NCBI GenBank assembly: GCA_016201205.1
Contig: JACQDF010000055.1
Location: 1 to 55,298, forward strand
Direction: 5' to 3'
Length of the DNA: 55,298 nt
From: Acidobacteriota bacterium
GTDB taxonomy: Bacteria > Acidobacteriota > Terriglobia > Bryobacterales > Bryobacteraceae
The notes under the pieces were generated by a model that worked only from the letters and a program-made list of their open reading frames with translations, searched no databases and was not told the DNA's origin. Positions 6,703 through 31,640 of the stretch are shown one piece after another. A program made the translations under genes and the position numbers. The stretch's first letter is position 1. Every line of letters begins with the position of its first letter.

Positions 6703-8040
6703 ATGAGAGAGAGATGGTTGGATCGATTCGCGCAGGTGATGGGACGCCTGGTCCCCGATGCCATCACCGCTTGCGTCCTGCTGCTGGTGATTCTCTTTGC
6801 CGCCGCCCTGGCTCTCGGCAACTCGCTTGTCAAGACAATGGAGGCCTATTACCAGGGGCTCTGGATGCTGTTGCCGTTCACCATGCAGATGACGCTGATC
6901 ATTGTGCTGAGCTCGGTCTTGGGCTCGACCCCCTTTTTTCGAAAAGCGATTCGAAGCCTGTCCCAAATCCCCAAGACTGCGAATCATGTGGTGATCCTTT
7001 CCGTTCTGCTTTGCGCGCTTGCATCGTATCTGTACTGGGGCCTGGGGCTTGCACTGAGCCCGATCGTGGCCATCCACTTCGCCCGGCAGGCGGAGCGGAA
7101 GGGGATCGCCATCGATTTCCCGTTCCTGATGAGCGTGCTCTGGGCTTCCAACGCCGCCTGGCAATATGGCCTGTCGGCCAGCGCCCCGCTGCTGGTGGCG
7201 ACTCCGGGCCACTTCCTCGAGAAGCAGATCGGCATTATCCCGCTCTCGACCACCATCTGGTCGCCGGCCGCGATCGCTCACGAGATTTTGTTTGTTGCCG
7301 CCATTCTGGCGGCCGGCTGCCTGCTGATGCCCAAGCAATGCCGGATGGTCTCGAGCTTTCCCGGCGTCGCCAGAATCCTCGAGGCGACGGCCCTTCCGGA
7401 ATCGGCGCCGCTAACCTGGTCCGAGCGCATCGAGCGAAACTCGCTGGGGACGCTGGTTCTCTGCGTCTTCCTCGCCGGCTGGCTGTATCTTCATTTCGCC
7501 GTCCGCCGCCTCAGCCTGGACATCAACTCGCTGAACACGATCCTGCTGCTCTCGAGTCTGCTGCTGCACGGCAGCGTCCACGCATTCACGAAAGCGTTGC
7601 AGCAAGCGATCACGACGGCGTGGCCGGTGATCGTGCTGTATCATCTCTATGCCGGAGTCGCCGGGCTGATCCAGTACACAAACACCGGCGAGACACTGGC
7701 CGGCATCGTTTCCACGGTCGCTACGCCGCTGACGTTCCCCTTCCTCACCGCCGCGATCAGCGCCGTGTTCGCGATCTTCATCCCATCGAGCGGCGGGCAG
7801 TGGGCGATCCAGGGCTTTGTCACCGCCAAGTCGGCCATGGCCGTGGGCGTCTCCGTCCAGCGTGGCATTCTTGCTTTGAGCATCGGAGACCACATGGGCA
7901 ACCTCACCTCGCCCTTCTGGTACGTCATCGTCGCCGGCATCGCCAACGTGGATTTTCGGAGCTTCTTCGGCTACGGGCTGCTGTTCGCGCTGATCTGGTT
8001 TTCGATCGGCGTGGCGGTGTTTACGTTCCTGCCTTGCTGA
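6703..8040 (+). CDS. atoE: Short-chain fatty acid transporter, AtoE family
   Basis: Inner-membrane permease of the AtoE family, which takes up short-chain fatty acids such as acetoacetate or butyrate. 445 residues, the usual length, with 10-12 hydrophobic segments. Recognisable family stretches are the N-terminal RFAQVMGRLVPDAITACVLL, then YYQGLWMLLPFTMQMTLI, then SNAAWQYGLSASAPLLVATP, and near the end FIPSSGGQWAIQG and HMGNLTSPFWYV. It stands alone with no CoA-transferase genes nearby, so its metabolic use is inferred only from the family. Its last 20 bases overlap the 3' end of the convergent glycosyltransferase gene. Confidence 0.9.
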   Translation: MRERWLDRFAQVMGRLVPDAITACVLLLVILFAAALALGNSLVKTMEAYYQGLWMLLPFTMQMTLIIVLSSVLGSTPFFRKAIRSLSQIPKTANHVVILSVLLCALASYLYWGLGLALSPIVAIHFARQAERKGIAIDFPFLMSVLWASNAAWQYGLSASAPLLVATPGHFLEKQIGIIPLSTTIWSPAAIAHEILFVAAILAAGCLLMPKQCRMVSSFPGVARILEATALPESAPLTWSERIERNSLGTLVLCVFLAGWLYLHFAVRRLSLDINSLNTILLLSSLLLHGSVHAFTKALQQAITTAWPVIVLYHLYAGVAGLIQYTNTGETLAGIVSTVATPLTFPFLTAAISAVFAIFIPSSGGQWAIQGFVTAKSAMAVGVSVQRGILALSIGDHMGNLTSPFWYVIVAGIANVDFRSFFGYGLLFALIWFSIGVAVFTFLPC

Positions 8041-9109
8041 GCCCGAGCACGGCGCTCATCTTGTCTCGAAACACCGCCTGCGAGAAGCGCTGCGCCCGCC
8101 GCTGAAGCTCGACCGGGCTGAAGCTTGCCTCTTCGCTCACAAAGCGCCGTATCGCTTCCTCAAGATGTTCTTCATCGGGTTTTGGATAGAGTACGCCACA
8201 GGGAGGATCTTCGGACCCGAGGACTTCGCAAACACCTCCGCGCGCCAGCGCGATCACCGGTTTTCCGCTGGCCAGGGCCTCGACCGGGGCCATGCCGAAA
8301 TCTTCTTCCCCCGGCATGAGAAATGCACGGCAGCGCGCGTACAGCTCACCGAGCTCCGCTTCGTCCACGCGGCCGCAGAACTGCACATTGGGCTGCGCCA
8401 TGTTTCGCAGGCGGCGATACTCGGGGCCGTCGCCAACGATCAGCAGCCGGCGTCCCGTCTTCGAAAACAGGCGCACGGCAACGTCGATCCGCTTGTAGGC
8501 CACCAGCTCGGACACGACGAGGAAGTAATCGTCCGGGGGCTTCGAGAAAAAGGAATCCACAGCCACCGGAGGGTGGATGACGAGCGCGTCGCGGCGGTAT
8601 GCCTTCCAGATGCGGCGGCGGACGTTTTCGCTGTTGGCGATGAATTCATCCACTCGAGCGGCAGCCGCAAAGTCCCACTGCCGCAGGTAGTGAGCGAAGG
8701 CGGCGAACCACGGCCGTTGCCAGCGACTCGACCAGTCGTGCAGGTAGTCCGGATACAAGTCCCACAGGTACCGCATCGGGGTGTGGCAATAGCAGACGTG
8801 ACGTGTGTTGGAGGAAGTGAGAACGCCTTTGGCCGGGCCGGACTCGCTCGAAATCACCAGATCGTAACCGCGCAGATCGAACTGCTCCAATGCCACCGGC
8901 ATCAGCGGGAGCAGGGTGCGATGCCAGCGGCGCAAAGGGTTCAGAAAGGAGGTGGTGACTTTGCGCTCACGAATCGTCTGGCTCACACGCCGCGGATCAT
9001 AAAACAGGGTGAACAGATCCGCTTCCGGAAGCAGGCGGCACAACTCTTCCACCACCTTCTCCCCGCCGCGCATGTGCAGGAGCCAGTAATGAACGATCGC
9101 CGGTCGCAC
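8021..9109 (-). CDS. GT4-family glycosyltransferase
   Basis: Cytoplasmic retaining glycosyltransferase with GT-B fold, 362 residues. The N-terminal acceptor domain starts HYWLLHMRGGEKVVEELCR. The nucleotide-sugar domain carries the typical GDGPEYRRLRNMA motif and the EX7E-like signature GEEDFGMAPVEALASGKPVI. Residues around CYCHTPMRYLWDLYPDYL match GT4 enzymes acting in exopolysaccharide or O-antigen synthesis. It is transcribed away from the HprK-like gene; the gap of 65 bp could hold promoters for both. Donor and acceptor sugars are unknown. Confidence 0.88.
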   Translation of the reverse strand: MRPAIVHYWLLHMRGGEKVVEELCRLLPEADLFTLFYDPRRVSQTIRERKVTTSFLNPLRRWHRTLLPLMPVALEQFDLRGYDLVISSESGPAKGVLTSSNTRHVCYCHTPMRYLWDLYPDYLHDWSSRWQRPWFAAFAHYLRQWDFAAAARVDEFIANSENVRRRIWKAYRRDALVIHPPVAVDSFFSKPPDDYFLVVSELVAYKRIDVAVRLFSKTGRRLLIVGDGPEYRRLRNMAQPNVQFCGRVDEAELGELYARCRAFLMPGEEDFGMAPVEALASGKPVIALARGGVCEVLGSEDPPCGVLYPKPDEEHLEEAIRRFVSEEASFSPVELQRRAQRFSQAVFRDKMSAVLGLSKAGT

Positions 9110-9174: not shown

Positions 9175-10137
9175 ATGGATCCGTTGCGCTATCGGGTCGA
9201 TTTGCCTCTTTCAGCGGAATTCCATCCGCTGGGATTTCCCGTCCGGCTGCGCACCAACTCTCGAGAGGCGCTGGCCGCGGCCCGCGAAGACTGGGGACGA
9301 TGCCGGCCGAAGTTTGAACGCCCTCCGCTGGAGGTTCGGGTGGCGGTCTCCGACGAGCACGATGCTCCTCCTCCGCCCGACCCGGTATGGCGCGCCCAGC
9401 GGCACGTGCTGAGCATCGTCAGCGATCAGCGCCATTTTGCCGCTTGCGATCTGGATCGAGGATTCTCCTTTTGCTGGCTGACGCCGGTCGCCATGCGGGA
9501 TGCCTGCTGGGTGCGCTGGCACTTTCTGAACACGATGGTCTACTGCACCCTCACTCACCTCTACCTCACTCCTGTTCACGCTGCCTGCGTGTGCTGGCAG
9601 GGTCGCGGCGTGCTGTTGTGCGGCGAGTCGGGAACAGGGAAAAGCACGCTCGCCTATGCCTGCGCCTGCCAGGGCTGGAAGTACATCTCCGACGATGCCA
9701 GTTATCTGGTGCGCGACACCGGCAGCCGCATCTCAATTGGCAGCTCGCACCAGATCCGATTTCGCGACACGGCGGCCGCCCTGTTCCCGGAGCTTCGCGG
9801 AAGGCTGGCCACCCGGCGGCCCGGCGGAAAGCTCTCCATTGAGGTATGGACAGAGGATCTGCCCCAGGTGCGGACGGCCACCGAGTGCCGCGCCGATTTC
9901 ATCGTGTTCCTGGACCGCCGTCCGGAGGGAGACGCGGGTCTGACGCCGGTGACCAATGAAGACGCACTCGCCCGGTGGCTCGGCGCCCTGGCTGTGTTTG
10001 ACCGGCCCGTGCGCGAGGAGCATGAACAGTCTTTGCGCAGGCTGCTCGAAGCGGACGCATACGAATTGCGGTATTCCACATTCGACCAGGCGGTCGCGCA
10101 ATTGAATGCACTCGTGGGAAAGGGCGCAGGCCGTTGA
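9175..10137 (+). CDS. HPr-kinase-like ATPase
   Basis: A 320-residue P-loop protein related to the C-terminal catalytic domain of HPr kinase/phosphorylase. Walker A is GESGTGKST at about residues 150-158, and the paired aspartates of the HprK active site are seen in WKYISDDASYLV (173-174). The first 130 residues have no recognised domain. Members of this group occur next to nucleotidyltransferases in peptide-modification and polysaccharide loci, where they may phosphorylate a protein, peptide or sugar; true HPr and PTS genes are not in the window. ATG 9175 is chosen; a TTG at 9112 would add 21 residues of low complexity. Its stop overlaps the next gene's start (TTGA), so the two are probably translationally coupled. 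Confidence 0.8.
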   Translation: MDPLRYRVDLPLSAEFHPLGFPVRLRTNSREALAAAREDWGRCRPKFERPPLEVRVAVSDEHDAPPPPDPVWRAQRHVLSIVSDQRHFAACDLDRGFSFCWLTPVAMRDACWVRWHFLNTMVYCTLTHLYLTPVHAACVCWQGRGVLLCGESGTGKSTLAYACACQGWKYISDDASYLVRDTGSRISIGSSHQIRFRDTAAALFPELRGRLATRRPGGKLSIEVWTEDLPQVRTATECRADFIVFLDRRPEGDAGLTPVTNEDALARWLGALAVFDRPVREEHEQSLRRLLEADAYELRYSTFDQAVAQLNALVGKGAGR

Positions 10138-12536
10138 ACGAACGTGTCACCCGCGGCCTTTGGCAAGCCTTGCGATGGGATGGCGGAACCACGGATCTTG
10201 AGGCGCTCCGGGATCAGGATTGGAAAGACGTGCTCGCTTTCTGCGATCGCGCACAGCTCACCCTGGTGCTCGCCCGCACAGTGAACAGCGCACCGGAATG
10301 GCTGCGGGCGGAATTCGACCGCCGCATGCGCTCGAACGCGGAGCGTCACGACCGGTTGCGCGATTCATTCTGCGAAATCGCCGGCGCACTGGAACGAATG
10401 CGCACCGATTACCTGGTGTTGAAAGGGTTCACGCAATGGGGGCTCTATTGCGAAGACCCTCTGGTACGGGTGCAGTATGACTTCGATCTCTACTGCCCTC
10501 CGGAGTCGCTGTACAAGGCCCGCGACGCGCTCCTCGATCTGGGCTATGAAGCTCTCAAAGAACGGGAGGAGTTCCCCACGGACCATCTGCCGGTGATGGT
10601 GCGTAAGACGGGATACCAGTGGCGCGGAGATTATTTCGATCCGGACATTCCATTTGCCGTGGACCTCCATTTCCAGTTCTGGAGCCAGGAGGCGGAGCGA
10701 ATTGCCGCGCCGGGCGTGGAGCATTTCTGGGATCGGCGGGCGCGAATGCGAGTCTTCGAGCGTGAGGTGGCGGCGCTCCATCCGGCAGACGGCCTGGCTT
10801 ACTGCTGTCTGCATCTGTTGCGCCATCTGTTGCATGGCAGTGTGCGCCCCTTCCATGTCTATGAGCTCGCATCATTCTTACATCGCAAGGCGGAGGATGA
10901 AGCGTTCTGGCGGGAATGGGAAAGCCTGCATCCGCCGCGTCTGCGCTTTCTTCAAGCGATCGCGTTTCGCCTCGCCACGGAATGGTTTGGCTGCCGGCTG
11001 TCGCCTGTTGCAAGAGCGGAGGCGGAGGCGCTGCCTTCGCTGGTCCAGAGCTGGTTTGCGATGTTCGGCGCCTCCGGGGTCTGGCGCGGGTATCGCAACA
11101 AGAGCGAGTTATGGCTTCATTGGAGCCTTCTTGACAACCGGCGCGACCGGCTGAGCATCGCGAGAAGGAAGCTGCTGCCAGCACGCCTTCCCGGGCCGGT
11201 GGACGCTGTTCTGCTGCCCGGCAGCCAGATCAATTGGCGGGTGCGGCTCCGCGGCCGCTGGCGCTATCTGCTCTATCTGGTTTCGCGCATCCTGTTCCAC
11301 ACACGCACACTGGTTCCGGCGCTCTGGCAGGGACTCCGCTGGTGGCGACCTCAGTCCGGCTTGCACCAGGATCTGCCGCTGTTTCTGGCGATGTCGTCTG
11401 TCTTCGGACTTGGCGTCTACGTGATCGTGCTGCTCTACAACCTCTACCTGCTGGACTTGGGATTTCGTGAGGATTCTGCCGGCCTGGTAAGCACCGCGCA
11501 CACCGCCGGGAGCATTGCCGGCGCTCTGCCCGCTGCCTCGTTGATCGCGCGGTTGGGGCTCCGGCGCACGCTGGCGCTTGCCTTCGCTGCTCTCGCCGTG
11601 GTTTCAGCGTGCCGGGCACTGGCGGCATCGCAGACAGCACTGCTGGGCTTCGCCTTTCTCGGCGGGGCGCTGCTCTCGATCTGTCCTGTGGCGATGGCGC
11701 CGGCGATCGCGCAGCTCACCACCGAGGCGCGGCGGCCGCTGGGATTCAGCCTTTTCATCGCTACCGGAATCAGCACCGGAGTCTTGGGCGGATGGCTGGG
11801 AGGGCGCTTGCCGCTGTGGGTCGGAGGCAAACAGGCGGCCTTGCTTTTCGGGAGCCTGCTGATCGCGTGCGCGCTTCCGTTCCTGCTCAGAATCCGGTTC
11901 GCCGGTACGGATGCGCCACGTGCCGCTGCCTATCCACGCGGCCCGTTTATCGCGCGATTCCTGGCTGCCATGGCCGTCTGGAACGTCGCCACCGCCACGT
12001 TCAATCCCTTCTTCAACATGTTCTTCTCGCGCCATCTTGGCACTCCCGTCGAGCGCATCGGTTCGATTTACTCGGCTGCGCAACTGACGCAGGTGGCTGC
12101 GCTGCTGATGGCGCCGCTGCTGGTTCGCCGGCTTGGCACGGTCAACGCCATCGGTTCGATGCAGGCAGCCACTGCCGTGGCTCTGGCCGCCCTCGCCATG
12201 GCCTCGCCCGGCGCCTGGCCCGCCGTCGCGTACTCGATGTACATGGCGTTCCAGTGGATGAGCGAACCGGGCATGTACTCTCTGCTCATGCAGCGGGTGG
12301 CAACATCGGAGCGCGCCGGCGCCTCCGCGCTGAACATGCTGGTGAGCTTCGCGATCCAGGCCATCGTAGCGATGGCGGCCGGGCGCGCGTTCGCCGATTT
12401 CGGCTATCCTCCGGTGCTGGCTACGGCGGCGGCAATCGGGCTGAGCGCGGCGCTGCTGTTCCGCTGTCTTCTGGGGAAGTATGAACCGCCGCCTCCATCG
12501 CCTCGAGCACCTCCGTCTGGTAACGCTCCAAGGTAA
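10134..12536 (+). CDS. Fusion of NTP_transf_5-type nucleotidyltransferase and MFS transporter
   Basis: 800 residues, two clearly different halves. Residues 1 to about 385 resemble the uncharacterised nucleotidyltransferase family PF14907: YLVLKGFTQWGLY (KG at 97-98), an arginine, then the catalytic-type DFDLY at 116-120, and later HFQFW and HLLRHLLHG helices. From about residue 412 a major-facilitator protein with 12 hydrophobic segments begins (LPLFLAMSSVFGLGVYV), with a loop RLGLRR after the second-third helix as in MFS permeases. The TTG start at 10134 overlaps the HprK-like stop. The last ~18 residues (PPPPSPRAPP) lie antisense to the convergent glycosyltransferase. I infer that nucleotidyl transfer and export of one product are linked; neither substrate is known. 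There is no internal stop, so this is a true fusion and not two genes. Confidence 0.82.
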   Translation: MNERVTRGLWQALRWDGGTTDLEALRDQDWKDVLAFCDRAQLTLVLARTVNSAPEWLRAEFDRRMRSNAERHDRLRDSFCEIAGALERMRTDYLVLKGFTQWGLYCEDPLVRVQYDFDLYCPPESLYKARDALLDLGYEALKEREEFPTDHLPVMVRKTGYQWRGDYFDPDIPFAVDLHFQFWSQEAERIAAPGVEHFWDRRARMRVFEREVAALHPADGLAYCCLHLLRHLLHGSVRPFHVYELASFLHRKAEDEAFWREWESLHPPRLRFLQAIAFRLATEWFGCRLSPVARAEAEALPSLVQSWFAMFGASGVWRGYRNKSELWLHWSLLDNRRDRLSIARRKLLPARLPGPVDAVLLPGSQINWRVRLRGRWRYLLYLVSRILFHTRTLVPALWQGLRWWRPQSGLHQDLPLFLAMSSVFGLGVYVIVLLYNLYLLDLGFREDSAGLVSTAHTAGSIAGALPAASLIARLGLRRTLALAFAALAVVSACRALAASQTALLGFAFLGGALLSICPVAMAPAIAQLTTEARRPLGFSLFIATGISTGVLGGWLGGRLPLWVGGKQAALLFGSLLIACALPFLLRIRFAGTDAPRAAAYPRGPFIARFLAAMAVWNVATATFNPFFNMFFSRHLGTPVERIGSIYSAAQLTQVAALLMAPLLVRRLGTVNAIGSMQAATAVALAALAMASPGAWPAVAYSMYMAFQWMSEPGMYSLLMQRVATSERAGASALNMLVSFAIQAIVAMAAGRAFADFGYPPVLATAAAIGLSAALLFRCLLGKYEPPPPSPRAPPSGNAPR

Positions 12537-13572
12537 AGGATGTCTCCCAATACGCGCGCCCCGCTTGGGCTGCTTTCCGCAGCCTGGCCGGCTGCTCCAT
12601 CAATTGGTCGAGCACAGTGGCCAGCGCTTCCGCCGTGGGCGTCGGAACCAGGAACCCGGTTTCACCATCGAGGACCACTTCCGGAATGCCTCCCGAAGCG
12701 AAGGCCACTACGGGCACGCCGGCCGCATAGGACTCGAGAATGACGCGCGGGGTGGCCTCGGCAACGATCGAGGGCACAACGAGCACATCCAGTCCTCCGA
12801 TCACTGAGGCGGCGTCTTCCACGTATCCGGTGAACTCGACGGGAAGCCCTTGCGCCAGCCGCTGAAGCTCGCGCTGGTAGGCGCTCTCGAACGGATCGGA
12901 GAACAATGTGGAGCCGCAGATGACAAAGCGACATTGGTCCGCGCGTTTGGTCAGCCTGCGCGCTGCTTCCAGGAAGATGTGCTGTCCTTTGCCGCGATCG
13001 AGTCGCCCCACCACGCCAACCCGGAACTCTGGGTGCCGGCCGTTCCCCGGCCTGCGAGGCTCCGCGACGCCGTTGTAAACGATGCGAGCGCGGCGGGCTG
13101 CAAGCGGTTCCAGCGCGAAGCGCGAGGACGACACAACGGATGCGCCTGCGGCGCCGAGCGACCAATTCGCCAATGCAAGCGACCCTCCCGCGAGCCGGTT
13201 GTGACAATGAAACAACACCGGCCGTTTGTTTCGGGCGCACCAGGCCGCCGGCGGCAACAACTGTGGCCCGTTGACATAAAACAAGCCGGCCCGGCTCTGT
13301 TCAGCCAGCGCGCCAATGGCCCGTACGAGCCCCGGCAGCCGGACGCTGTAGCGGATCACGTCCCGCCAGTCCTTGTGTCCCATCGAGTAGCGGCCGCATT
13401 CGAGTGAATGCACGATGACGCCGAGCGATCGAAGCCTGCCGGCCAGCGGTCCGGCGGCAGGCGCCGCCACGTGTGGGCGCCAGCCTCGCTGGACCACCGC
13501 CGGCATCAGGTCCAGCAGGCAGCGCTGCGCTCCTCCCAAGTCGCCGTATTGATCCAGAAACAAGACGGTCAT
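12421..13572 (-). CDS. GT4-family glycosyltransferase
   Basis: GT-B glycosyltransferase of 383 residues, last gene of a wzz-ligase-GT operon. The N-terminus MTVLFLDQYGDLGGAQRCLL is typical of GT4 enzymes. The C-terminal domain has VGVVGRLDRGKGQHIFLEAA and the signature EATPRVILESYAAGVPVVAF. ATG 13572 is chosen because it overlaps the ligase stop (ATGA) and begins exactly at the GT-B first strand; a longer upstream reading would only mirror the ligase gene. Its 3' end overlaps the NTase-MFS fusion gene by 116 bp on the opposite strand. The sugars involved are unknown. Confidence 0.88.
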   Translation of the reverse strand: MTVLFLDQYGDLGGAQRCLLDLMPAVVQRGWRPHVAAPAAGPLAGRLRSLGVIVHSLECGRYSMGHKDWRDVIRYSVRLPGLVRAIGALAEQSRAGLFYVNGPQLLPPAAWCARNKRPVLFHCHNRLAGGSLALANWSLGAAGASVVSSSRFALEPLAARRARIVYNGVAEPRRPGNGRHPEFRVGVVGRLDRGKGQHIFLEAARRLTKRADQCRFVICGSTLFSDPFESAYQRELQRLAQGLPVEFTGYVEDAASVIGGLDVLVVPSIVAEATPRVILESYAAGVPVVAFASGGIPEVVLDGETGFLVPTPTAEALATVLDQLMEQPARLRKAAQAGRAYWETSFTLERYQTEVLEAMEAAVHTSPEDSGTAAPRSARLPPP

Positions 13573-14933
13573 CGGCGCAGAGCCACCGCCAGCGTCCACA
13601 AGTAGAGAGGCATCACGCGCCAGTAGGTGAGCAGGTCCCCTGACACCATCTGCACCGTTTCGCCGCCCCAGAAACACAGAATCCAGGCGCCGAAGAACGA
13701 GCTCCGGGTGTTGTCGCTGCGGGCCGCGCGCCAGCCAGCGCGAAGAATCGCAACGTTGACGATGAGCAACGCTGCCAGCCCGACCAGGCCCGTTTCCACG
13801 AGAATACTCAGGTACATGTTGTCGGCGATGACCGGCCTTCCGGCAACGCTCGAGTAGGGCAATGTCTTGTACCCTACGCCGAACAGGAGATGCCAGGGAT
13901 TCACGGCCAGGAAGCCTGCCAGATGATTCCAGCTTTCCAGGCGGCCCGACAGGACGCCTCCCGTCTCCGAGAACATGTAGACGCCAGAAGCCCACCACCG
14001 CAGCCAGTACGCTTCCAGAAAATCGCCGAAGTAGCGTCCCAACGCGAGGAAACCCGCAGCGACCAGGGGGGGCAGGATCCAGATTGCGCGCGGAAGGCGA
14101 ATCCGGCGGCGATTCAGGAAAATGAGCAGCGTCGCGGCAACGGCGACATTCAGCACGGATGCGCGTGAGAACGACAAAACCAGCGCGGCGGAGAACACCA
14201 CCGCGCCCGCGGCCAGCGCCACACGGCATACCGGCGCGGCCAGCGGCCGGGCCAGCGATACTGCGATCATCACCAGGAAGAATGCGCACAGGTTTCCCAG
14301 CGTGCTCGCCTCATAAAAAAGTCCCTGTGCGCGCCGGTAGACGCCCGTATCCAGCCAGATGAACTGCGGGCCGAAACCAGCCGGCGGCGGCCACTGGAAA
14401 TAGAAATCGAGGCAGGCGAATCCGGCGGCCGCAAACCCCGCCCAGAACAGCAGCCGGGCGACACGTTCGGCATCGGACGGCGCAATCCAGCGCTCGAAGA
14501 AAAACACGCACAGCGAGAGCCCGAAGAGCAGGATTCGAAGCAGCGACTGCCCGGCCAGCACAGGCCCGGAATGAATCAGCGCCATCGGCACGCTCACCAG
14601 GAGGGCCAGCAACAGCAAGCACAAGGCCGCTGAAACGAAGTCCCATTGCATCCGCCACTGATCCAGATGCAGCAGGCCGACGAAGATGCCCAGCGCGGCG
14701 ATCACGATGCTCGGGTGCGGGCCGGAGTCACCGATGGGGATCGGCAGCGGCGGCAGCAGCAACGCCGCACAAAAGAACGCCGGAATCCAACGCGCCGGCG
14801 AGAGGAGCAGCCACCAGCACAGCGGCGCAGCCAGGCACAGGACGGCCGCCAGCAGGATGAACTTCGGATCGGGAAGAAATGCCAGCAGAGCCGCGCAAGC
14901 GCCCAGCAGCGCGGCCGCCAGCCAGGGAATCAT
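13569..14933 (-). CDS. O-antigen ligase / polymerase-like membrane protein
   Basis: 454-residue polytopic membrane protein with about 11-12 hydrophobic segments and one large periplasmic loop. The region GRLESWNHLAGFLAVNPWHLLFGVGYKTLP matches the Wzy_C/O-antigen ligase superfamily, which joins or polymerises undecaprenyl-linked glycans on the periplasmic side. Start and stop overlap both neighbours by four bases (14930-14933 with the Wzz-like gene, 13569-13572 with the GT), so the three genes form one translationally coupled operon. Whether it is a ligase or a Wzy polymerase cannot be decided from sequence. Confidence 0.83.
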   Translation of the reverse strand: MIPWLAAALLGACAALLAFLPDPKFILLAAVLCLAAPLCWWLLLSPARWIPAFFCAALLLPPLPIPIGDSGPHPSIVIAALGIFVGLLHLDQWRMQWDFVSAALCLLLLALLVSVPMALIHSGPVLAGQSLLRILLFGLSLCVFFFERWIAPSDAERVARLLFWAGFAAAGFACLDFYFQWPPPAGFGPQFIWLDTGVYRRAQGLFYEASTLGNLCAFFLVMIAVSLARPLAAPVCRVALAAGAVVFSAALVLSFSRASVLNVAVAATLLIFLNRRRIRLPRAIWILPPLVAAGFLALGRYFGDFLEAYWLRWWASGVYMFSETGGVLSGRLESWNHLAGFLAVNPWHLLFGVGYKTLPYSSVAGRPVIADNMYLSILVETGLVGLAALLIVNVAILRAGWRAARSDNTRSSFFGAWILCFWGGETVQMVSGDLLTYWRVMPLYLWTLAVALRR

Positions 14934-16039
14934 TCGAGGCTCCGCGAAGCAACGCGAAGAGCCGGACGCTTCGCCTCCCCGCTTCTGGAGCGCACGCTGA
15001 ACTCAACTGCCAGCCAGGCGAGCGAGAGCAGCGTCGCCAGCAGCCAGGCAGCCACCAGATTCAGCGGCAGATTCGGAAAAGACGGCCGCTCAGGAACGAT
15101 GCCCGGATCGATAATCTTCAGCCGTTCCCCGCGATACCCGATGGTGATTCCGGTGTCGCGGAGGCGGCTCTCGGCGGACTCGAGAGACGCCTGGGCCGCT
15201 TTCCGCTGCACGTCGAGCTGCTCCCGCCGGGCCAGCCCTTCCTGCAACCGAACCTGCTTGCGAGCGATCTCCTGCCGCAGCTCCTCGATCTGGCTGCGCA
15301 AGTTCGCGGCTCGGGCGCGGGCGCTCGACCACTCGATGGTGGCGCTCTCAGATGCCTTGCGCCGCTCCGCATATTCGGCCGCGAGCAGATCCTCCTGGCG
15401 CAACTGGCGCTCGAGATCCGTCTGGGCGTCCGTTCGGGCGTCGATTTCGGCCTCCAGCGAGTCCACCGGATGCTGCTGCCGCAGGCGAGACCAGGCCGCT
15501 TCGGCGTTCTCGCGGCGGATGCGCGCTTGCTCGTGCTGTTTCACCGCCGCCGCCGCCAGCTCCTCGTCGCCCTGCCGGTTGACCGTCTGATTCAGCTTCA
15601 CCGTTTCCTCGGCAATAAAGAACGCCAGCCCATGCGCCTTGCGGGGATCGCCGAGGGTGACGTGGATTTCCAGGATCTTGGTGTTGCGTGGAATGGTGAC
15701 TTCCAGCACGCTGCGCTTCCACGACTCGACGGGCCTGTGCCTGGACTGCTCGCGCAACTGGAACTTGTCAAGCGCTCGCAGAAACAGGCTGTCGCTGGAA
15801 GCGAAGTGCTCATACGTGCGAAGCGATTCGAGATAAATGGGGCTGACGGCCATGCTGGCGCGAACATCGGCGCCCGCCGGCGGCTCAATCAAGATGCGGC
15901 ACGTCGCAGTGTATTTGTTGGGAATCGCAAGGCTGACTCCCAGCGCAATCGCCAGCGCCGCCAACCACGCAACCGCCACGAAGCGCCAGCGCGTCCGCAG
16001 GTGTTCGAAAAACTGCAATGGGTCCACTGCATCCGGCAT
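14930..16039 (-). CDS. Wzz-like chain-length determinant (polysaccharide co-polymerase)
   Basis: 369-residue inner-membrane protein with the Wzz topology: an N-terminal TM segment (residues 19-40, VAVAWLAALAIALGVSLAI), a periplasmic domain with the familiar YTATCRILIEPP strand, a long charged coiled coil (about 160-290), a PERPSFPNLPLN motif (the PxxP-type segment before TM2) and a second TM (about 325-347). No C-terminal tyrosine kinase domain is present. It probably sets the chain length of the polymer handled by the ligase-like gene downstream. It is the first gene of the operon, divergent from the O-antigen ligase 5' fragment at 16072. Confidence 0.85.
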   Translation of the reverse strand: MPDAVDPLQFFEHLRTRWRFVAVAWLAALAIALGVSLAIPNKYTATCRILIEPPAGADVRASMAVSPIYLESLRTYEHFASSDSLFLRALDKFQLREQSRHRPVESWKRSVLEVTIPRNTKILEIHVTLGDPRKAHGLAFFIAEETVKLNQTVNRQGDEELAAAAVKQHEQARIRRENAEAAWSRLRQQHPVDSLEAEIDARTDAQTDLERQLRQEDLLAAEYAERRKASESATIEWSSARARAANLRSQIEELRQEIARKQVRLQEGLARREQLDVQRKAAQASLESAESRLRDTGITIGYRGERLKIIDPGIVPERPSFPNLPLNLVAAWLLATLLSLAWLAVEFSVRSRSGEAKRPALRVASRSLE

Positions 16040-20630: not shown

Positions 20631-23600
20631 ATGACGAAATACGTGCTTGTGCTTCTGACGTACCTCCTGAGCGTTCTGCAAATCTGGGCGCAGGGGCAAT
20701 TTGGCTCCATCAATGGCCAGATCAAGGATGAAACGGGCGCGGTTGTGCCCGGCGCGGCGGTCCTCGTCCGGAACGCGGATACCGGCGTGGACCTCAACGT
20801 CGTCTCTGATGAGCAGGGCCGATACCTTGCGCCACAGCTTCTGCCAGGCACCTACAACCTGATTGTTCGCCGGGATGGATTCAAGCAGGTCGCCATCAAC
20901 GGCCTGAAGCTCGACACGAACGGAAATCTCACACAGGATCTTCTTCTGACGGTGGGCGCGGTGGCCGAGAGCATACAGGTATCCGGCCAGGCCACACTCG
21001 TGGACACGGTTACCGGCTCCATTGGTCATGTCGTCAACAACAAGTCCGTGCTCGAATTGCCCTTGAACGGGCGCGCCGCCTACAACCTGGTCGCGCTCAC
21101 GCCGGGATCGTTCGTTCGAACCGGCGCTGCCATATACGTTTCCATTGGCGGAGGCCGCACGCTTTCGGCCACCAGCGTACTGGATGGCGTGGCGGGAGGT
21201 TCGGGAGGTATTTCCCAGTCGACGATAGGCTTCACCCCGTCGGTGGACGCTTTGCAGGAGTATCGCGTCGAGGCCAACAGTTTCTCGGCGCAGTACGGCC
21301 GCTCGAATGCGGGCATCATCAACGCAACCACGAAGAGCGGATCGAATGAACTCCACGGTGCGCTGTATTGGTTTGTCCGGAACGACGCGTTCGATTCACG
21401 CGGGTGGATTGCGGGTGAGCGCGCCAGCCTCCGGCGCAACACCTTCGGCGGAAGTCTCGGCGGCCCCGTTCGCAGGAACAAGACTTTCTTCTTCTTCAAT
21501 CTCGAAGGATTGCGCGAGCGGCGCGGAGTGCCTCAGACGCGCACAGTTCCGCTCGCCGAATGGCGCACTGGCGATTTGAGCACGTTGCGGCGTGCCGTGA
21601 CCACAGCCCAAGGTGTACAGGGCCAGCAACTGGTGGTGTACGATCCGGCCACGAACCAGCAGCAACCGTTTCCGGGCAACCGCATCCCGGACGCCCGCCA
21701 GGACGCAGTCGCCTTGAACATTCTGAAAGTGATGCCGCTTGCGAATCGCACACCGGACAACCCGATCACACAACAGGGAAATTTCCAGGAAATCGCCGTC
21801 ACGCCGATCACCCGCGATGTACACACCATGCGCGTGGATCATTCGCTCAGTCCCGGCACGCAGATCTTCGGACGGTACATGGTTGCGAGCCCGAACATCG
21901 CACCGCTTGCCGGATTCACTCCCTCCTATGGGCCTTTTGATCCGAATGCCATTGACATTCGCGGCCGCAGTCACAGTCTCTCGGTGAACATAAGCCACGT
22001 CTTCTCGCCTTCGTTTTTCGTGTCCGCACGCGTAGGCGGGGTCCGTACGCCCGAAACCCGTTCCTCGGCGAGTTTGGGGCAGAACTGGCCCGAGAAGCTG
22101 GGCCTGAAGGGCGTCGCGCCGGACTCGTTTCCGCGCATCAACCTGCAAGCCGGACTTGTGCCGCTCACCAACATCGGCACCGGCGGCAGCGGCAATGTCC
22201 AGTATCGTTTCTATGCGTTTCAAAACCTGGAAACGCAATTGAACCTCACCAGGATTCTCGGCAGCCACACGTTGAAATTCGGCGGCACTCATATGCGCAT
22301 CTCGGGAAACGACGAGAACCGTCAGAGCGCCTCGGGGATCTTCGGGTTCGGACCGCAGTATACGACTGGCCGCACCCCGGCGGGGGCGACGATCGCGAAC
22401 ACGGGATCCACGATTTCCGATCTTCTGCTGGGACGGCCCGACTCGGTGACGTTGCGCGCCGCCCCAATGATGGGGCGCAGGATCCGCCACTACGCCGGAT
22501 ACCTTGAAGACGATTACCGCATCACCAGCCGGCTCACGCTGAACCTTGGATTGCGCTACGAAGTGGAGTCGCCATTCTTCGAAGTGAACAATCGCATGAC
22601 CAGCATGGATCCGCAAGCGCCGCATCCTCTGGCCGGAAAGGGCGACATCCCCGCCGGCCAGTTGGGGGCGATCATCTTCCCCGGACGCGGACGCGGCCGC
22701 TATCTCGTCAATTGGGACGCCAATAATTTTGCGCCTCGGGTGGGATTTGCTTACCGGCCCACGTCCTCGAACGATATCGTGGTCCGCGGCGGGATCGGGA
22801 TCTTCTACGGAAATCCGTACGATAACAACGTGATTCAAACGATGCGTGCAGGCTTTGAGAGCCAGGGCAATTATACGTTCCCGGTGCCGTTCACCCTCGC
22901 TCAGGGACTCCCGCCGGGTACGCTGGTGACCCCGCCGGAGCCGGAATTAACCGGCGCCTTCGGGGCGCGTGGCACTGCGTTCCCAACCTCCAGTATCGAC
23001 TGGATCGACCGATACCGCCGCACCCAGTACAGCATCAATTACAACTTCACCGTGCAGCGGCAATGGCGCGAGATTCTGTTCGAAGCTTCCTACTTCGCGA
23101 ATCTGGGCCGCAAGGTGCCGTTCCCGTCGCTGAATGTGAACCAGATTCCCATGCAGTTGCTCTCGCGGACCGACATTCCGGAACGCTTGAAGCGGCCCTA
23201 CACACAGTTTTCCGGCGACCGCGCCGACGTGAACCTGCAAGTGCCGAATTTCGGGCTATCGAATTACCACGCCCTCGGTCTGAAGGTGGATAAACGCTTC
23301 TCCAAAGGGCTTGGTCTGACTGTTGCGTACACCTTCTCCAAGTGGATTGACAACGTTCAGTTCACGGGCGGAGACGATGCCACTTGGGGAGACAACGACG
23401 GAATTCAGAATATCTACGACCTGCGGAACGAGCGCTCGTTGTCTACGAATCACATTCCGCATCGTCTTGTGTTCAGCCCTATCTGGGAACTGCCATTTGG
23501 CAAGGGCAAACCATTCGCCAGCCGGGGCGGCTGGACGGATTGGATCATTGCCGGATGGCAGGTGTCCACGATCTCCACACTCCAGGCGGGATCGATGGTC

Positions 23601-24023
23601 GGCGCCACGGTGACCAACGGCGCGCGCGACATCCTCGGCGACGCCGCGACAGGACGCGTGCTTAGACCGAACGTGTCCGCAAATCCGAACATCGTGGACG
23701 GCAAGGGGCAGCCGGCGCCCGGGCAGCGGGGAATCACCTGGTTCAACCCAGCCGTCTTCTCGACACCCGCGCGGTTCACGCCGGGCAACGCGGCCCGCAC
23801 GCTCATCCAAGGGCTCCGGCTCGTGAACTTCGATTTCGCCATGATGAAGAATTTCCGCATTGCCGAGCGCTATCGCCTGCAGTTGAGATGGGAAGCGTTT
23901 AATGCGACCAACACCCCTTATTTCGAAGTTCTCGGTGATGTATTGGGCCAAGGGAATTTCGGCGTGGCGACGGCCGGGAACTCGAAACGCGAGATGCAGT
24001 TTGCTCTAAAACTCTACTTTTAG
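20631..24023 (+). CDS. Oar-like TonB-dependent receptor with carboxypeptidase-regulatory domain
   Basis: 1130-residue outer-membrane protein of the acidobacterial Oar/Cna-B receptor type. Signal peptide about residues 1-21 (ending WAQGQ). Then a carboxypeptidase-regulatory-like beta-sandwich (about 24-110: GSINGQIKDETGAVVPGAAV, with SDEQGRYLAPQLLPGTYNL). A plug-like region follows (about 125-240, with SVLELPLNGRAAYNLVALTP), and then the large beta-barrel. It ends in an aromatic residue (KLYF), as barrel proteins do. Such receptors import bulky substrates, often glycans, using the proton-motive force through TonB; the ligand is unknown. It is a single-gene unit next to a convergent exported protein. 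Confidence 0.92.
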   Translation: MTKYVLVLLTYLLSVLQIWAQGQFGSINGQIKDETGAVVPGAAVLVRNADTGVDLNVVSDEQGRYLAPQLLPGTYNLIVRRDGFKQVAINGLKLDTNGNLTQDLLLTVGAVAESIQVSGQATLVDTVTGSIGHVVNNKSVLELPLNGRAAYNLVALTPGSFVRTGAAIYVSIGGGRTLSATSVLDGVAGGSGGISQSTIGFTPSVDALQEYRVEANSFSAQYGRSNAGIINATTKSGSNELHGALYWFVRNDAFDSRGWIAGERASLRRNTFGGSLGGPVRRNKTFFFFNLEGLRERRGVPQTRTVPLAEWRTGDLSTLRRAVTTAQGVQGQQLVVYDPATNQQQPFPGNRIPDARQDAVALNILKVMPLANRTPDNPITQQGNFQEIAVTPITRDVHTMRVDHSLSPGTQIFGRYMVASPNIAPLAGFTPSYGPFDPNAIDIRGRSHSLSVNISHVFSPSFFVSARVGGVRTPETRSSASLGQNWPEKLGLKGVAPDSFPRINLQAGLVPLTNIGTGGSGNVQYRFYAFQNLETQLNLTRILGSHTLKFGGTHMRISGNDENRQSASGIFGFGPQYTTGRTPAGATIANTGSTISDLLLGRPDSVTLRAAPMMGRRIRHYAGYLEDDYRITSRLTLNLGLRYEVESPFFEVNNRMTSMDPQAPHPLAGKGDIPAGQLGAIIFPGRGRGRYLVNWDANNFAPRVGFAYRPTSSNDIVVRGGIGIFYGNPYDNNVIQTMRAGFESQGNYTFPVPFTLAQGLPPGTLVTPPEPELTGAFGARGTAFPTSSIDWIDRYRRTQYSINYNFTVQRQWREILFEASYFANLGRKVPFPSLNVNQIPMQLLSRTDIPERLKRPYTQFSGDRADVNLQVPNFGLSNYHALGLKVDKRFSKGLGLTVAYTFSKWIDNVQFTGGDDATWGDNDGIQNIYDLRNERSLSTNHIPHRLVFSPIWELPFGKGKPFASRGGWTDWIIAGWQVSTISTLQAGSMVGATVTNGARDILGDAATGRVLRPNVSANPNIVDGKGQPAPGQRGITWFNPAVFSTPARFTPGNAARTLIQGLRLVNFDFAMMKNFRIAERYRLQLRWEAFNATNTPYFEVLGDVLGQGNFGVATAGNSKREMQFALKLYF

Positions 24024-29798: not shown

Positions 29799-31640
29799 AT
29801 GGCCATTGCCTTGGCTATCGTTCTGGCGCTGACGCCTTTGGCGATCACGCCGGGCTGGCTGTTCTACTTCGACGTCACCGGGAAGGCGGTGATCCTGCTG
29901 CTGGGAGCCGCCATGGGCCTGATCCTGCTGCGCGGCGAAAGCGCGCTGCCGGGCTCGGGAACCGGCCGCTGGCTGGTGCTTCTCTGCGTGTTGCAGATGA
30001 TCTCGCTGTCGGCTTCGACCGCACTTTCCACCAATCCGGCCCTTTCCCTGAATGGCTCCAACTGGCGGCGCTTCGGAGGCATGACACAGGCCGGGCTCAT
30101 CGCAGTGGTCGTGTTGCTGGCGGCCTGGGTTGCCGGCAACCGGGCGCGGGTTCTTTTTCTGCTGCGGGTGATCTCGCTAAGCGGGCTCCCCATCGCTCTC
30201 TACGGGGTGCTGCAATATTTCGGCTGGGACCCGTTTCTGCCGGCCTCCGCCTATCACGTAGGCGAAGGAATGTGGACCATCGTGCGGCCGCCGGCCACAT
30301 TGGGCCGCGCAAACTACTTTGCCACTTACTCGCTGTATGTGACATTTGCCGGAATATCGCTGGCAATGGTGGAATCGCACCCAGGCTGGAAGCTGGCCGG
30401 GGCGGCCTCCGGCCTGCTCCCGGCGATTGCCATTATCCTCAGCGGGACGCGTTCCGCGATGGCCGGGCTGGCCGCCGGCGGCGTGCTGCTGCTGGTCTGG
30501 TCACGGCAGCGGTTCTCCCGAAGATTGACGCTGCTTGGCCTGGCTGGGATCGCGGCCCTGTGGATCTTCTATTACTCGCCGCCCGGCCTGAAGCTGCGCA
30601 GCCGCACGCGCTGGTACCTGGAAGATCCCCACGGCGGAGCGCGCCTGTGGCTGTGGCGGGATTCCTTGCTTATGGCTCGCTCGCGCTGGCTGTTTGGCCA
30701 CGGGCCGGAAACCTACGCCACTGATTTCGCCAAATTCCAGTCCGCGGAATTGAGCCGTGTGTATCCGGATACGTACCACGAGTCGCCGCACAACATTTAT
30801 CTGGATACGCTCACTTCTCAGGGGGTTCCCGGCCTCTTGATTCTGCTGGCGCTGACGGCATTGGCGTTCGCGTCCGCCTGGAAGAGCCGCACTGTCGACA
30901 ACAGACTTGCGGGCGCACTGCTGGCCTCGTTCCTCGCCGGCCTGGTAAGCCTCCAGTTTATCGTGTTCACGCTTCCCACCGCGCTCCTGTGCTACACCAC
31001 TCTTGCGCTGCTGGTTGGACAGAGTGTGGGTCCCCAGACGCTGAGACGTGCTCCGAGCCGGCGGCTCCGGATAGCGGCCGCCTTATGCGCGTTGCCGCTT
31101 GCGGCGTTTGCCGTTCAGCTCGCGGTGACGGACGCGGCGCTGGCGCAGGTCCAGCGTCTGCTGGATGGCGGGCGCTACCGCGACGCAATGCGCACGTACG
31201 ACTTCGTGCGGCGCTCGCAGCCCGCCGGCGCGACTTCCGACGTGTGGTACTCGCGCGCTCTGCTGGCCGCTTCGCAAAAACCATCCGAGCCGGGTCTGCG
31301 TCTCCGGATGTGGCTCGAAGCCTTTGAGGCAGCCACCCGGGCGGCTCAAGGCGCGGAGGACCGGCACAACGCCTGCTACAACCTGGCGATGTTTCATGCC
31401 GCCCGCAACGATGCCGCCGAGACCGAGCATTACCTGCGCGCGGCCGCCGCCTGGGCGCCGCAGTGGTTCAAGCCGCATTGGACGCTTGCTCAGCTTCTGC
31501 TCCGCACGGGACGGACGGCGGAGGCGCGAAAAGAAGCCGAGCTGGCCGTGTTTCTGAATGGCGCAAAGAACCCGGAGGTGCAAAAGACGCTCGATGGAAT
31601 CAAGCCGGTTGACTCCGGCAAATCTTCCACGTACAATTAG
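29799..31640 (+). CDS. O-antigen ligase-family protein with C-terminal TPRs
   Basis: 613 residues. The first ~430 form a polytopic membrane protein with about 11-12 hydrophobic segments and the Wzy_C-type region (SLLMARSRWLFGHGPETYAT, followed by the ligase-like HESPHNIYLDTLTSQGVPGL). The C-terminal ~180 residues are helical TPR-like repeats (DRHNACYNLAMFHAARNDAA, ETEHYLRAAAAWAPQW, HWTLAQLLLRTGRTAEARKE) probably exposed to the periplasm. It would polymerise or transfer lipid-linked glycans. The 5' end is duplicated at 16050, which suggests the gene once faced the Wzz-like gene directly. Confidence 0.86.
   Translation: MAIALAIVLALTPLAITPGWLFYFDVTGKAVILLLGAAMGLILLRGESALPGSGTGRWLVLLCVLQMISLSASTALSTNPALSLNGSNWRRFGGMTQAGLIAVVVLLAAWVAGNRARVLFLLRVISLSGLPIALYGVLQYFGWDPFLPASAYHVGEGMWTIVRPPATLGRANYFATYSLYVTFAGISLAMVESHPGWKLAGAASGLLPAIAIILSGTRSAMAGLAAGGVLLLVWSRQRFSRRLTLLGLAGIAALWIFYYSPPGLKLRSRTRWYLEDPHGGARLWLWRDSLLMARSRWLFGHGPETYATDFAKFQSAELSRVYPDTYHESPHNIYLDTLTSQGVPGLLILLALTALAFASAWKSRTVDNRLAGALLASFLAGLVSLQFIVFTLPTALLCYTTLALLVGQSVGPQTLRRAPSRRLRIAAALCALPLAAFAVQLAVTDAALAQVQRLLDGGRYRDAMRTYDFVRRSQPAGATSDVWYSRALLAASQKPSEPGLRLRMWLEAFEAATRAAQGAEDRHNACYNLAMFHAARNDAAETEHYLRAAAAWAPQWFKPHWTLAQLLLRTGRTAEARKEAELAVFLNGAKNPEVQKTLDGIKPVDSGKSSTYN

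What the first reader, a model, noticed from the sequence alone, without database searches (positions are those of the whole stretch)
9175..12536. HPr-kinase-like ATPase coupled to a nucleotidyltransferase-MFS fusion
Two genes overlap by four bases (TTGA). The second encodes an 800-residue protein in which a PF14907-type nucleotidyltransferase (KG at 97-98, DFDLY at 116-120) is fused in one frame with a 12-helix MFS permease. HprK-like proteins with such nucleotidyltransferases are known near peptide-modification and polysaccharide genes, but I do not know of this fusion with an exporter. It suggests a pathway in which phosphorylation, nucleotidylation and export of one small product are tied together inside an O-antigen locus. 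No precursor peptide was found nearby.
Basis: partly seen in the sequence, partly recalled or inferred. Interest (0 to 1): 0.75.

Follow-up and report, generated by a model that had tools for sequence, protein, structure and literature searches.

The report
Phosphate-joining enzyme fused to membrane carrier
Some soil Acidobacteria carry a kinase next to a second enzyme that is physically joined to a membrane carrier, probably to modify one small molecule by phosphate chemistry and move it across the membrane; in three relatives the join itself may be made by a slip at a run of nine Ts.

Summary
The 800-residue ORF joins, in one frame, a PF14907 transferase (98 bits) and a 12-helix MFS carrier (94.5 bits), and overlaps an HprK-like kinase gene by TTGA. 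It is no artefact: 32 distinct genomes hold the fusion intact, 29 with the kinase in the stretch held. The kinase keeps the His-Lys-Asp-Asp set of lasso-peptide kinases; the transferase keeps K97-G98, R112, D116, D118 in 42 of 42 homologues. The kinase/PF14907 pair is also in the agrocin 84 cluster; that product, and pseudomycoidin, carry a hexose held by a phosphate. I read the module as a phospho-conjugating pair coupled to transport. No precursor peptide, PF05402 (PqqD) or lasso-B2 match was found. Substrate, chemistry and direction are inferred. The polysaccharide setting holds for the window's family, not for Acidobacteriaceae.

The parts
9175..10137 (+). HprK-like kinase, 320 aa, ATG start; Walker A with K156, H135, D173-D174
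   Evidence: pLDDT 93.7; PEPCK/HprK fold. Only match of this protein in the genome at E 0.001.
10134..12536 (+). Transferase::MFS fusion, 800 aa, TTG start overlapping the kinase stop by TTGA
   Evidence: intact in 32 distinct genomes.
10212..10991 (+). PF14907 (NTP_transf_5) domain, residues 27-286; K97-G98, R112, D116, D118, D177, H179
   Evidence: only PF14907 match in the genome; conservation in 42 homologues.
10992..11357 (+). Helical C-terminal extension of the transferase with long helix 368-408; matches of most stand-alone homologues also run to about residue 404
11373..12482 (+). 12-helix MFS carrier, residues 414-783
8021..9109 (-). GT4 glycosyltransferase, divergent neighbour
   Evidence: 93.4 bits; same family (F3) in 20 of 55 loci compared.
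12421..13572 (-). GT4 glycosyltransferase, convergent, overlapping the 3' end of the fusion by 116 bases
   Evidence: start codon at 13572 chosen by eye.
13569..14933 (-). Wzy_C / O-antigen-ligase family protein
   Evidence: 48.1 bits.
14930..16039 (-). Wzz-type chain-length protein
   Evidence: 27.6 bits, cut-off 25.5.

Best explanation
A phospho-conjugating enzyme pair coupled to a carrier, acting on one small molecule. (1) The HprK-like kinase phosphorylates (perhaps polyphosphorylates) a hydroxyl or amine of the substrate in the cytosol. (2) The PF14907 domain, with a pol-beta-like set of acidic residues (recalled comparison), joins that phosphate to a hydroxyl of a second molecule, most likely a sugar, leaving a phosphate-bridged conjugate. 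(3) The fused MFS carrier moves the product across the inner membrane, and in many relatives a dedicated TonB-dependent receptor lineage serves the same molecule at the outer membrane. Shown: the fusion, its recurrence, the kinase and receptor linkage, the conserved residues, and the kinase/PF14907 pair in the agrocin 84 cluster. Inferred: the chemistry, the substrate, and export rather than import (about 60:40).
For: Intact fusion in 32 genomes, kinase in the stretch held in 29. The fused state needs at least 7 changes on the transferase tree (42 rows, 16 fused) and 3 on the carrier tree (39 rows, 17 fused); a single fused clade is rejected on both. Kinase H135/K156/D173/D174 in 43/43/39/42 of 43 homologues, the His-Lys-Asp-Asp set reported for lasso-peptide kinases (PMC9266682, passages). 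Agrocin 84 cluster: agnE1 matches the kinase profile (97.6% probability) and agnF matches PF14907 above cut-off (40.8 bits); that product bears a glucopyranose joined through C2/O2 to a phosphoramidate (PMC4526662, passages). Pseudomycoidin: PsmK phosphorylates Ser, PsmN is needed for hexose on that phosphate (PMC9266682, PMC8498205, passages). A non-anomeric sugar linkage suits a sugar hydroxyl attacking a phosphate (inference). On plasmids 7 of 13 annotated regions read around kinase matches hold a PF14907 gene. Receptor lineage in 35 of 56 carrier-bearing loci, 1 of 25 loci with transferase but no carrier. T9 junction under constraint in three genomes.
Against: No biochemistry on any member. 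agnF is far from the window protein: two-sequence BLASTP finds nothing and hhalign gives 6.8% probability over 36 columns around the KG...R.DxD motif; the link rests on Pfam. PMC9266682 itself leaves open that PsmN is a nucleotidyltransferase and that a host enzyme adds the hexose. agnG has no Pfam match, so it is not an MFS by that test. The other 6 of the 13 plasmid regions show no nucleotidyltransferase gene, one of them a true PTS-type HPr kinase (gene tables incomplete). Neither the window's stretch nor its genome has the receptor lineage (best 37% identity). Kinase and transferase occur without the carrier in 16 of 82 loci, some cut by contig ends.
Confidence: 0.38

Rival explanations
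1. Import and trap: receptor and carrier bring a scavenged molecule in, and the kinase and fused transferase modify it at the cytosolic mouth of the carrier (salvage into an NDP-sugar for the polysaccharide, catabolism, or detoxification).
For: Specific TonB-dependent receptor with carrier-bearing loci (35 of 56 against 1 of 25); a GDPD-family gene beside kinase and carrier in 6 Acidobacteriaceae loci (L076, L077, L082, L087, L088, L089; Pfam tested on L088 only; secretion judged by eye); G6PT transporters among the top folds.
Against: Pol-beta-type transferases are not known to me (recalled) to make NDP-sugars; VMAT, NorA and MdfA exporters lead the same fold list; the kinase/PF14907 pair in agrocin 84 is in a biosynthetic cluster.
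Confidence: 0.25
2. Polysaccharide decoration: kinase and transferase add a phosphate-linked substituent to a lipid-linked repeat unit or nucleotide sugar, and the carrier moves the substituent or donor.
For: In the window a GT4 gene flanks the pair on each side, with Wzy_C and Wzz; in 14 further loci of the 54 compared a gene of the same GT4 family lies within three genes of the kinase. In L073 the kinase and transferase run in line with sugar-transferase, GT4 and MurJ-family genes.
Against: Acidobacteriaceae members lie beside cytochrome c-type, cupredoxin and OMP genes instead. The carrier does not replace a flippase: four of the five loci with the MurJ-family gene also have the carrier (L017, L056, L059, L063; not L073).
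Confidence: 0.18
3. Lasso- or RiPP-type peptide tailoring with an unlinked precursor.
For: The kinase hits a gene in a paeninodin-type lasso cluster on a Priestia plasmid (E 4e-5) and one in a Thalassobaculum lasso cluster; Sphingomonas and Vibrio HprK_rel_A genes sit next to PF14907 genes, the former with a PqqD-type chaperone.
Against: No PF05402 match and no PF13471 (lasso B2 type) match in a genome 94% complete; no recurring small ORF family except one group in 4 loci that looks like a shadow frame. Caution: PF05402 scores even the annotated Sphingomonas chaperone below cut-off (14.5 against 23.4 bits), and the PqqD_rel_X search rang in no control, so it says nothing.
Confidence: 0.08
4. 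Annotation artefact: two genes with a missed stop or an assembly error at about codon 405.
For: Stand-alone homologues of each half exist; three relatives have a frame change close to this point.
Against: 32 uninterrupted fusions from different genomes, 36-52% identical to the window where measured; third-position GC 0.67-0.81 along the gene without a break.
Confidence: 0.01

Closest known systems
Agrocin 84 genes agnE1 (HprK-like) and agnF (PF14907), with the annotated exporter gene agnG upstream of agnF on the same strand
   Same: Same two enzyme families together; transferase gene next to a transporter gene; product holds a hexose through a phosphate (PMC4526662, passages).
   Different: Separate genes; agnG has no Pfam MFS match, and in a related plasmid the gene at that place is annotated as a polysaccharide-biosynthesis type protein; a nucleotide pathway surrounds it; sequences very distant.
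Pseudomycoidin PsmK/PsmN and paeninodin-type lasso kinases
   Same: HprK-like kinase with the His-Lys-Asp-Asp set; nucleotidyltransferase needed for hexose on the phosphate (PMC9266682, PMC8498205, passages).
   Different: Peptide substrate with lasso maturases; no PF13471 (B2 type) match in this genome. PsmN itself was not available to compare.
HPr-rel-A systems (PqqD-type chaperone, HprK_rel_A kinase, nucleotidyltransferase)
   Same: Kinase followed by PF14907 gene (L144, L154).
   Different: Kinase scores 53.3 against a cut-off of 200 bits for TIGR04352; no PqqD-type partner found here, with the limits; the transferase genes there are separate, 306-362 aa, without a carrier in the regions read.
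Thermus dnaX, slippage at nine Ts
   Same: T9 run inside a gene giving products of two frames (PMC5009743, passage).
   Different: Here, in three relatives and not in the window, slippage would join an enzyme to a carrier; untested.

Membership tests
PF14907 NTP_transf_5 | Score over Pfam's curated cut-off | tested here: met
   98.0 bits against 31.2
PF14907 NTP_transf_5 | KG and R...DxD motif conserved (motif recalled) | tested here: met
   K97, G98, R112, D116, D118 in 42 of 42 homologues; D or E at 177 in 41 of 42
PF14907 NTP_transf_5 | Nucleotidyl or phosphoryl transfer activity | not testable with these tools
   No assay; Pfam calls the family uncharacterised
MFS | MFS_1 profile over cut-off and 12 helices | tested here: met
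   94.5 bits against 33.4; 12 helices in the model by my count
HPr kinase/phosphorylase (PF07475, TIGR00679) | Score over curated cut-off | tested here: not met
   29.4 against 33.3; 29 against 240. The predicted fold agrees with PEPCK and HprK
HPr-rel-A system (TIGR04352) | Kinase over cut-off | tested here: not met
   53.3 against 200 bits
HPr-rel-A system (TIGR04352) | PqqD-type partner | tested here: inconclusive
   No PF05402 match in the genome, but that model scores a known such partner below cut-off; PqqD_rel_X rang in no control
Lasso-peptide kinase clusters | His-Lys-Asp-Asp catalytic set | tested here: met
   H135, K156, D173, D174
Lasso-peptide kinase clusters | Lasso maturases and precursor | tested here: not met
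   No PF13471 (B2 type) match in the genome; no recurring small ORF family of weight; the C cyclase was not searched for
Agrocin 84 type phosphate-hexose conjugation | HprK-like kinase plus PF14907 transferase in one locus | tested here: met
Agrocin 84 type phosphate-hexose conjugation | Phosphate-bridged hexose product | not testable with these tools
   Needs chemistry

The most novel reading that the evidence does not exclude
A modification-coupled carrier: cells make a phosphate-bridged sugar conjugate (an agrocinopine-like private compound or signal), export it through the carrier that bears the conjugating enzyme, and retrieve it with a dedicated TonB-dependent receptor and, in some genomes, a GDPD-type phosphodiesterase. 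In Granulicella/Edaphobacter relatives the enzyme-to-carrier join is itself made by transcriptional slippage (or a -1 frameshift) at a conserved T9, giving free and tethered enzyme from one gene. The recoding part alone I hold at about 0.7; the whole statement much lower.
Probability: 0.12. Interest if true: 0.85.

Novelty: new variant of a known kind. Interest (0 to 1): 0.66.

Why it matters
Pfam labels PF14907 uncharacterised. Finding the same kinase/transferase family pair in the agrocin 84 cluster, beside the published kinase/nucleotidyltransferase pair of pseudomycoidin, gives one testable chemistry for the family. The recurrent fusion names a carrier and a receptor lineage that probably share its substrate, and the T9 junction offers a chromosomal case in which slippage would decide whether an enzyme is free or tethered to its carrier.

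Tried and rejected
Artefact or missed stop: rejected (32 intact fusions). L120 was left out of that count because only 0.18 of the carrier profile lies in the frame of its transferase. Precursor peptide: 2,366 ORFs of 18-130 aa outside the main genes of 55 loci were compared with each other; one group in 3 or more loci (L019, L058, L069, L075), likely a shadow frame. PqqD: no PF05402 match in the genome, but PF05402 gives the annotated Sphingomonas chaperone only 14.5 bits and the PqqD_rel_X search rang in no control genome, so a divergent PqqD-type protein is not excluded. Lasso B2 type (PF13471): no match. Carrier as flippase substitute: rejected, MurJ-family genes coexist in four loci. Carrier substrate from solved structures: by sequence only OCT2 at E 0.0011 for the whole alignment; folds mixed. 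Transferase half: no PDB sequence match at E 1; the fold search of the full model showed carriers in its top 50 as far as the rows are named, so the fold of the N-terminal half was not identified. First genome-contig scan with the single sequence found nothing. The receptor in the window (20631-24023) is not the linked lineage (about 28% identical to linked ones).

Dropped or merged rows: for and 112 loci of the same contig were merged by hand using contig lengths; L126 was dropped although its counterpart had not been fetched as a region; a receptor counted at 850 bits or more of a profile built from 12 linked receptors, so a truncated one (L060) does not count; three duplicates (L107/L189, L159/L190, L161/L191) were subtracted by hand to give 35/21 and 1/24. 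Loci, not genomes, are counted (five genomes give two loci each). Relatedness is not corrected, so the Fisher value (3.7e-7) is too small. The carrier tree lacks L067 and the transferase tree lacks L016. The T9 count (1,494,535 bases) holds some contigs twice. Names such as GT4, Wzy, sugar transferase and MurJ for relatives rest on clustering and Pfam of one member each.

Literature: 10 searches. No paper in that library held PF14907 or NTP_transf_5 by name, none held agnF with agrocin, and none held HPr kinase, nucleotidyltransferase, major facilitator and fused together; only open-licence PMC papers are searched. Seen as passages: PMC8498205, PMC9266682, PMC6429109, PMC4526662, PMC4392301, PMC3711429, PMC5009743, PMC4066793; others only in listings.
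Full report
WHAT IS THERE. The kinase gene (9175-10137, ATG) and the fusion gene (10134-12536, TTG) overlap by TTGA. Pfam places NTP_transf_5 at residues 27-286 and MFS_1 at 420-741, both well over cut-off. The kinase matches Hpr_kinase_C just below cut-off and HprK_rel_A well below. AlphaFold models are confident (kinase pLDDT 93.7; fusion 91.0). The kinase folds like PEPCK and HprK; the carrier half resembles VMAT, NorA, MdfA and G6PT, which does not decide direction. The genome (94% complete) shows one match to this kinase, one PF14907 gene, no PF05402 match (a weak test, see below) and no PF13471 match. It is unnamed; named relatives of its family are Bryobacterales/Bryobacteraceae, so I take it as that family (inference).

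THE FUSION IS REAL AND RECURRENT. Full-length matches were found in 7 of 61 genomes of the first set, 14 of 399 of the class, 4 of 62 of one Acidobacteriaceae genus and 3 of 398 of that family; these sets overlap and the first two include the window. Merged with named contigs and re-checked for coverage of both profiles, 32 distinct genomes hold it intact (duplicates removed by hand); 29 have the kinase in the stretch held, and in the other three (L016, L060, L119) the fusion lies close to a contig end. Stand-alone transferases and carriers also occur; matches of the former mostly end near residue 404, those of the latter begin between about 391 and 430. On trees the fused state needs at least 7 changes for the transferase and 3 for the carrier, and a single fused clade is rejected on both (the out-of-frame pairs described below count as separate).

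CONSERVED RESIDUES. In the transferase K97, G98, R112, D116 and D118 are present in 42 of 42 homologues, and D or E at 177 in 41. In the kinase H135 and K156 are in 43 of 43, D173 in 39 and D174 in 42. These four match the His-Lys-Asp-Asp set of lasso-peptide kinases (PMC9266682, passages; the correspondence is my reading).

PARTNERS. In the window the pair lies between two GT4 genes of a polysaccharide locus with Wzy_C and Wzz; in 14 further loci of 54 a gene of the same GT4 family lies within three genes of the kinase, and five loci have a MurJ-family gene there. In many Acidobacteriaceae loci it lies beside genes for cytochrome c-type proteins, a cupredoxin and an outer-membrane-like protein of no Pfam family, in six beside a GDPD-family gene. 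A TonB-dependent receptor lies within 500 bases of the kinase in 20 of 44 loci. The nearest kin of these 20 in other loci are 54-93% identical; of 11 other long receptors in the stretches, five belong to the same lineage (48-89% to a linked one) and six, among them the window's, are 25-32% identical to linked ones, in a setting where the genome has at least 65 proteins of this type. By profile, 35 of 56 carrier-bearing loci hold the lineage and 1 of 25 loci with transferase but no carrier does (relatedness not corrected). So receptor and carrier probably serve one molecule. The window's own genome lacks the lineage (best 37%), as do 13 of the 32 stretches with a fusion.

A JUNCTION THAT SEEMS TO SLIP. 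In G143 (Granulicella sp. GL140_4), G253 and G441 (Edaphobacter sp. RYN_3) the transferase frame ends soon after a T9 run inside the first carrier helix, and the carrier continues in the -1 frame; the 14 bases TCTTTTTTTTTGAC are identical in all three. Four fused relatives compared there spell the stretch mostly with TTC codons. In 1,494,535 bases there are five A/T runs of nine and none longer; four, from three genomes, are at this junction and one lies upstream of another transferase gene. Synonymous differences between the three are near or at saturation (pS 0.61-0.79; third-position identity 0.36-0.51), while the downstream carrier is constrained (dN/dS 0.14 in the one pair where it can be computed). 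Nine Ts is a length at which bacterial RNA polymerase slips with high efficiency, as used by Thermus dnaX (PMC5009743, passage). I think recoding is likely; phase variation, a separate start (in G253 the carrier frame has an upstream ATG) and assembly error remain. This is not in the window, whose two genes have no A/T run of seven or more.

LINK TO KNOWN CHEMISTRY. The kinase finds agnE1 of agrocin 84 (profile probability 97.6%), and agnF, two genes on, is a PF14907 protein (40.8 bits, cut-off 31.2). Of 13 annotated regions read, out of 28 plasmid records hit, 7 hold a PF14907 gene near the kinase, two of them agrocin-type; 6 show none. Agrocin 84 carries glucopyranose through C2/O2 on a phosphoramidate (PMC4526662, passages). 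In pseudomycoidin a kinase phosphorylates Ser and a nucleotidyltransferase is needed for hexose on that phosphate, and related kinases polyphosphorylate (PMC9266682; PMC8498205; passages). My inference: a polyphosphorylated substrate resembles an NTP, and a pol-beta-type enzyme could pass it to a sugar hydroxyl with release of pyrophosphate. Against it: the agnF comparison is weak outside Pfam; that agnE1 and agnF make the sugar-phosphate part is itself inferred; and PMC9266682 leaves open that PsmN is a true nucleotidyltransferase.

PEPTIDE READING. No recurring small ORF, no PF05402 and no PF13471 match speak against a RiPP, but PF05402 scores the annotated Sphingomonas chaperone below cut-off and the PqqD_rel_X search rang in no control, so a divergent chaperone is not excluded.

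ASSESSMENT. Fusion and kinase linkage: as good as certain. Two-step phospho-conjugation coupled to transport: my best reading, about 0.38. Import-and-trap and polysaccharide decoration are serious rivals. A new variant of a known kind.

Noticed in passing
L067:9744 (same place L143:9212), L068:10038, L130:9227: Identical T9 run at the transferase-carrier junction in three genomes, with the carrier in the -1 frame: candidate transcriptional slippage or -1 frameshift.
   Followed up: partly
window 12421-12536: The fusion gene and the convergent GT4 gene overlap by 116 bases; convergent overlaps of about 74-106 bases appear in L017, L018 and L019.
   Followed up: no
L064, L065, L067, L068, L070, L071 and others (families F7, F9, F10, F11): Recurring cassette of an outer-membrane-like protein without Pfam family, a cupredoxin and two cytochrome c-type proteins beside kinase and transferase in Acidobacteriaceae (one member of each tested, F10 below cut-off); meaning unknown.
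   Followed up: partly
L188:8134-11654: In G003 (same genus) a receptor of the linked lineage lies next to a 133-aa piece of an HprK-like frame, away from the fusion locus.
   Followed up: no
L024, L025, L026, L073-L075, L080, L095: Kinase and transferase without carrier lie near radical SAM genes: B12-binding type (F18) or SPASM type (F29).
   Followed up: no
window 20631-24023: Large OMP_b-brl_4 TonB-dependent receptor of the expanded acidobacterial type, not of the kinase-linked lineage.
   Followed up: yes
window 29799-31640: Second Wzy_C protein (613 aa) about 15 kb from the first.
   Followed up: no
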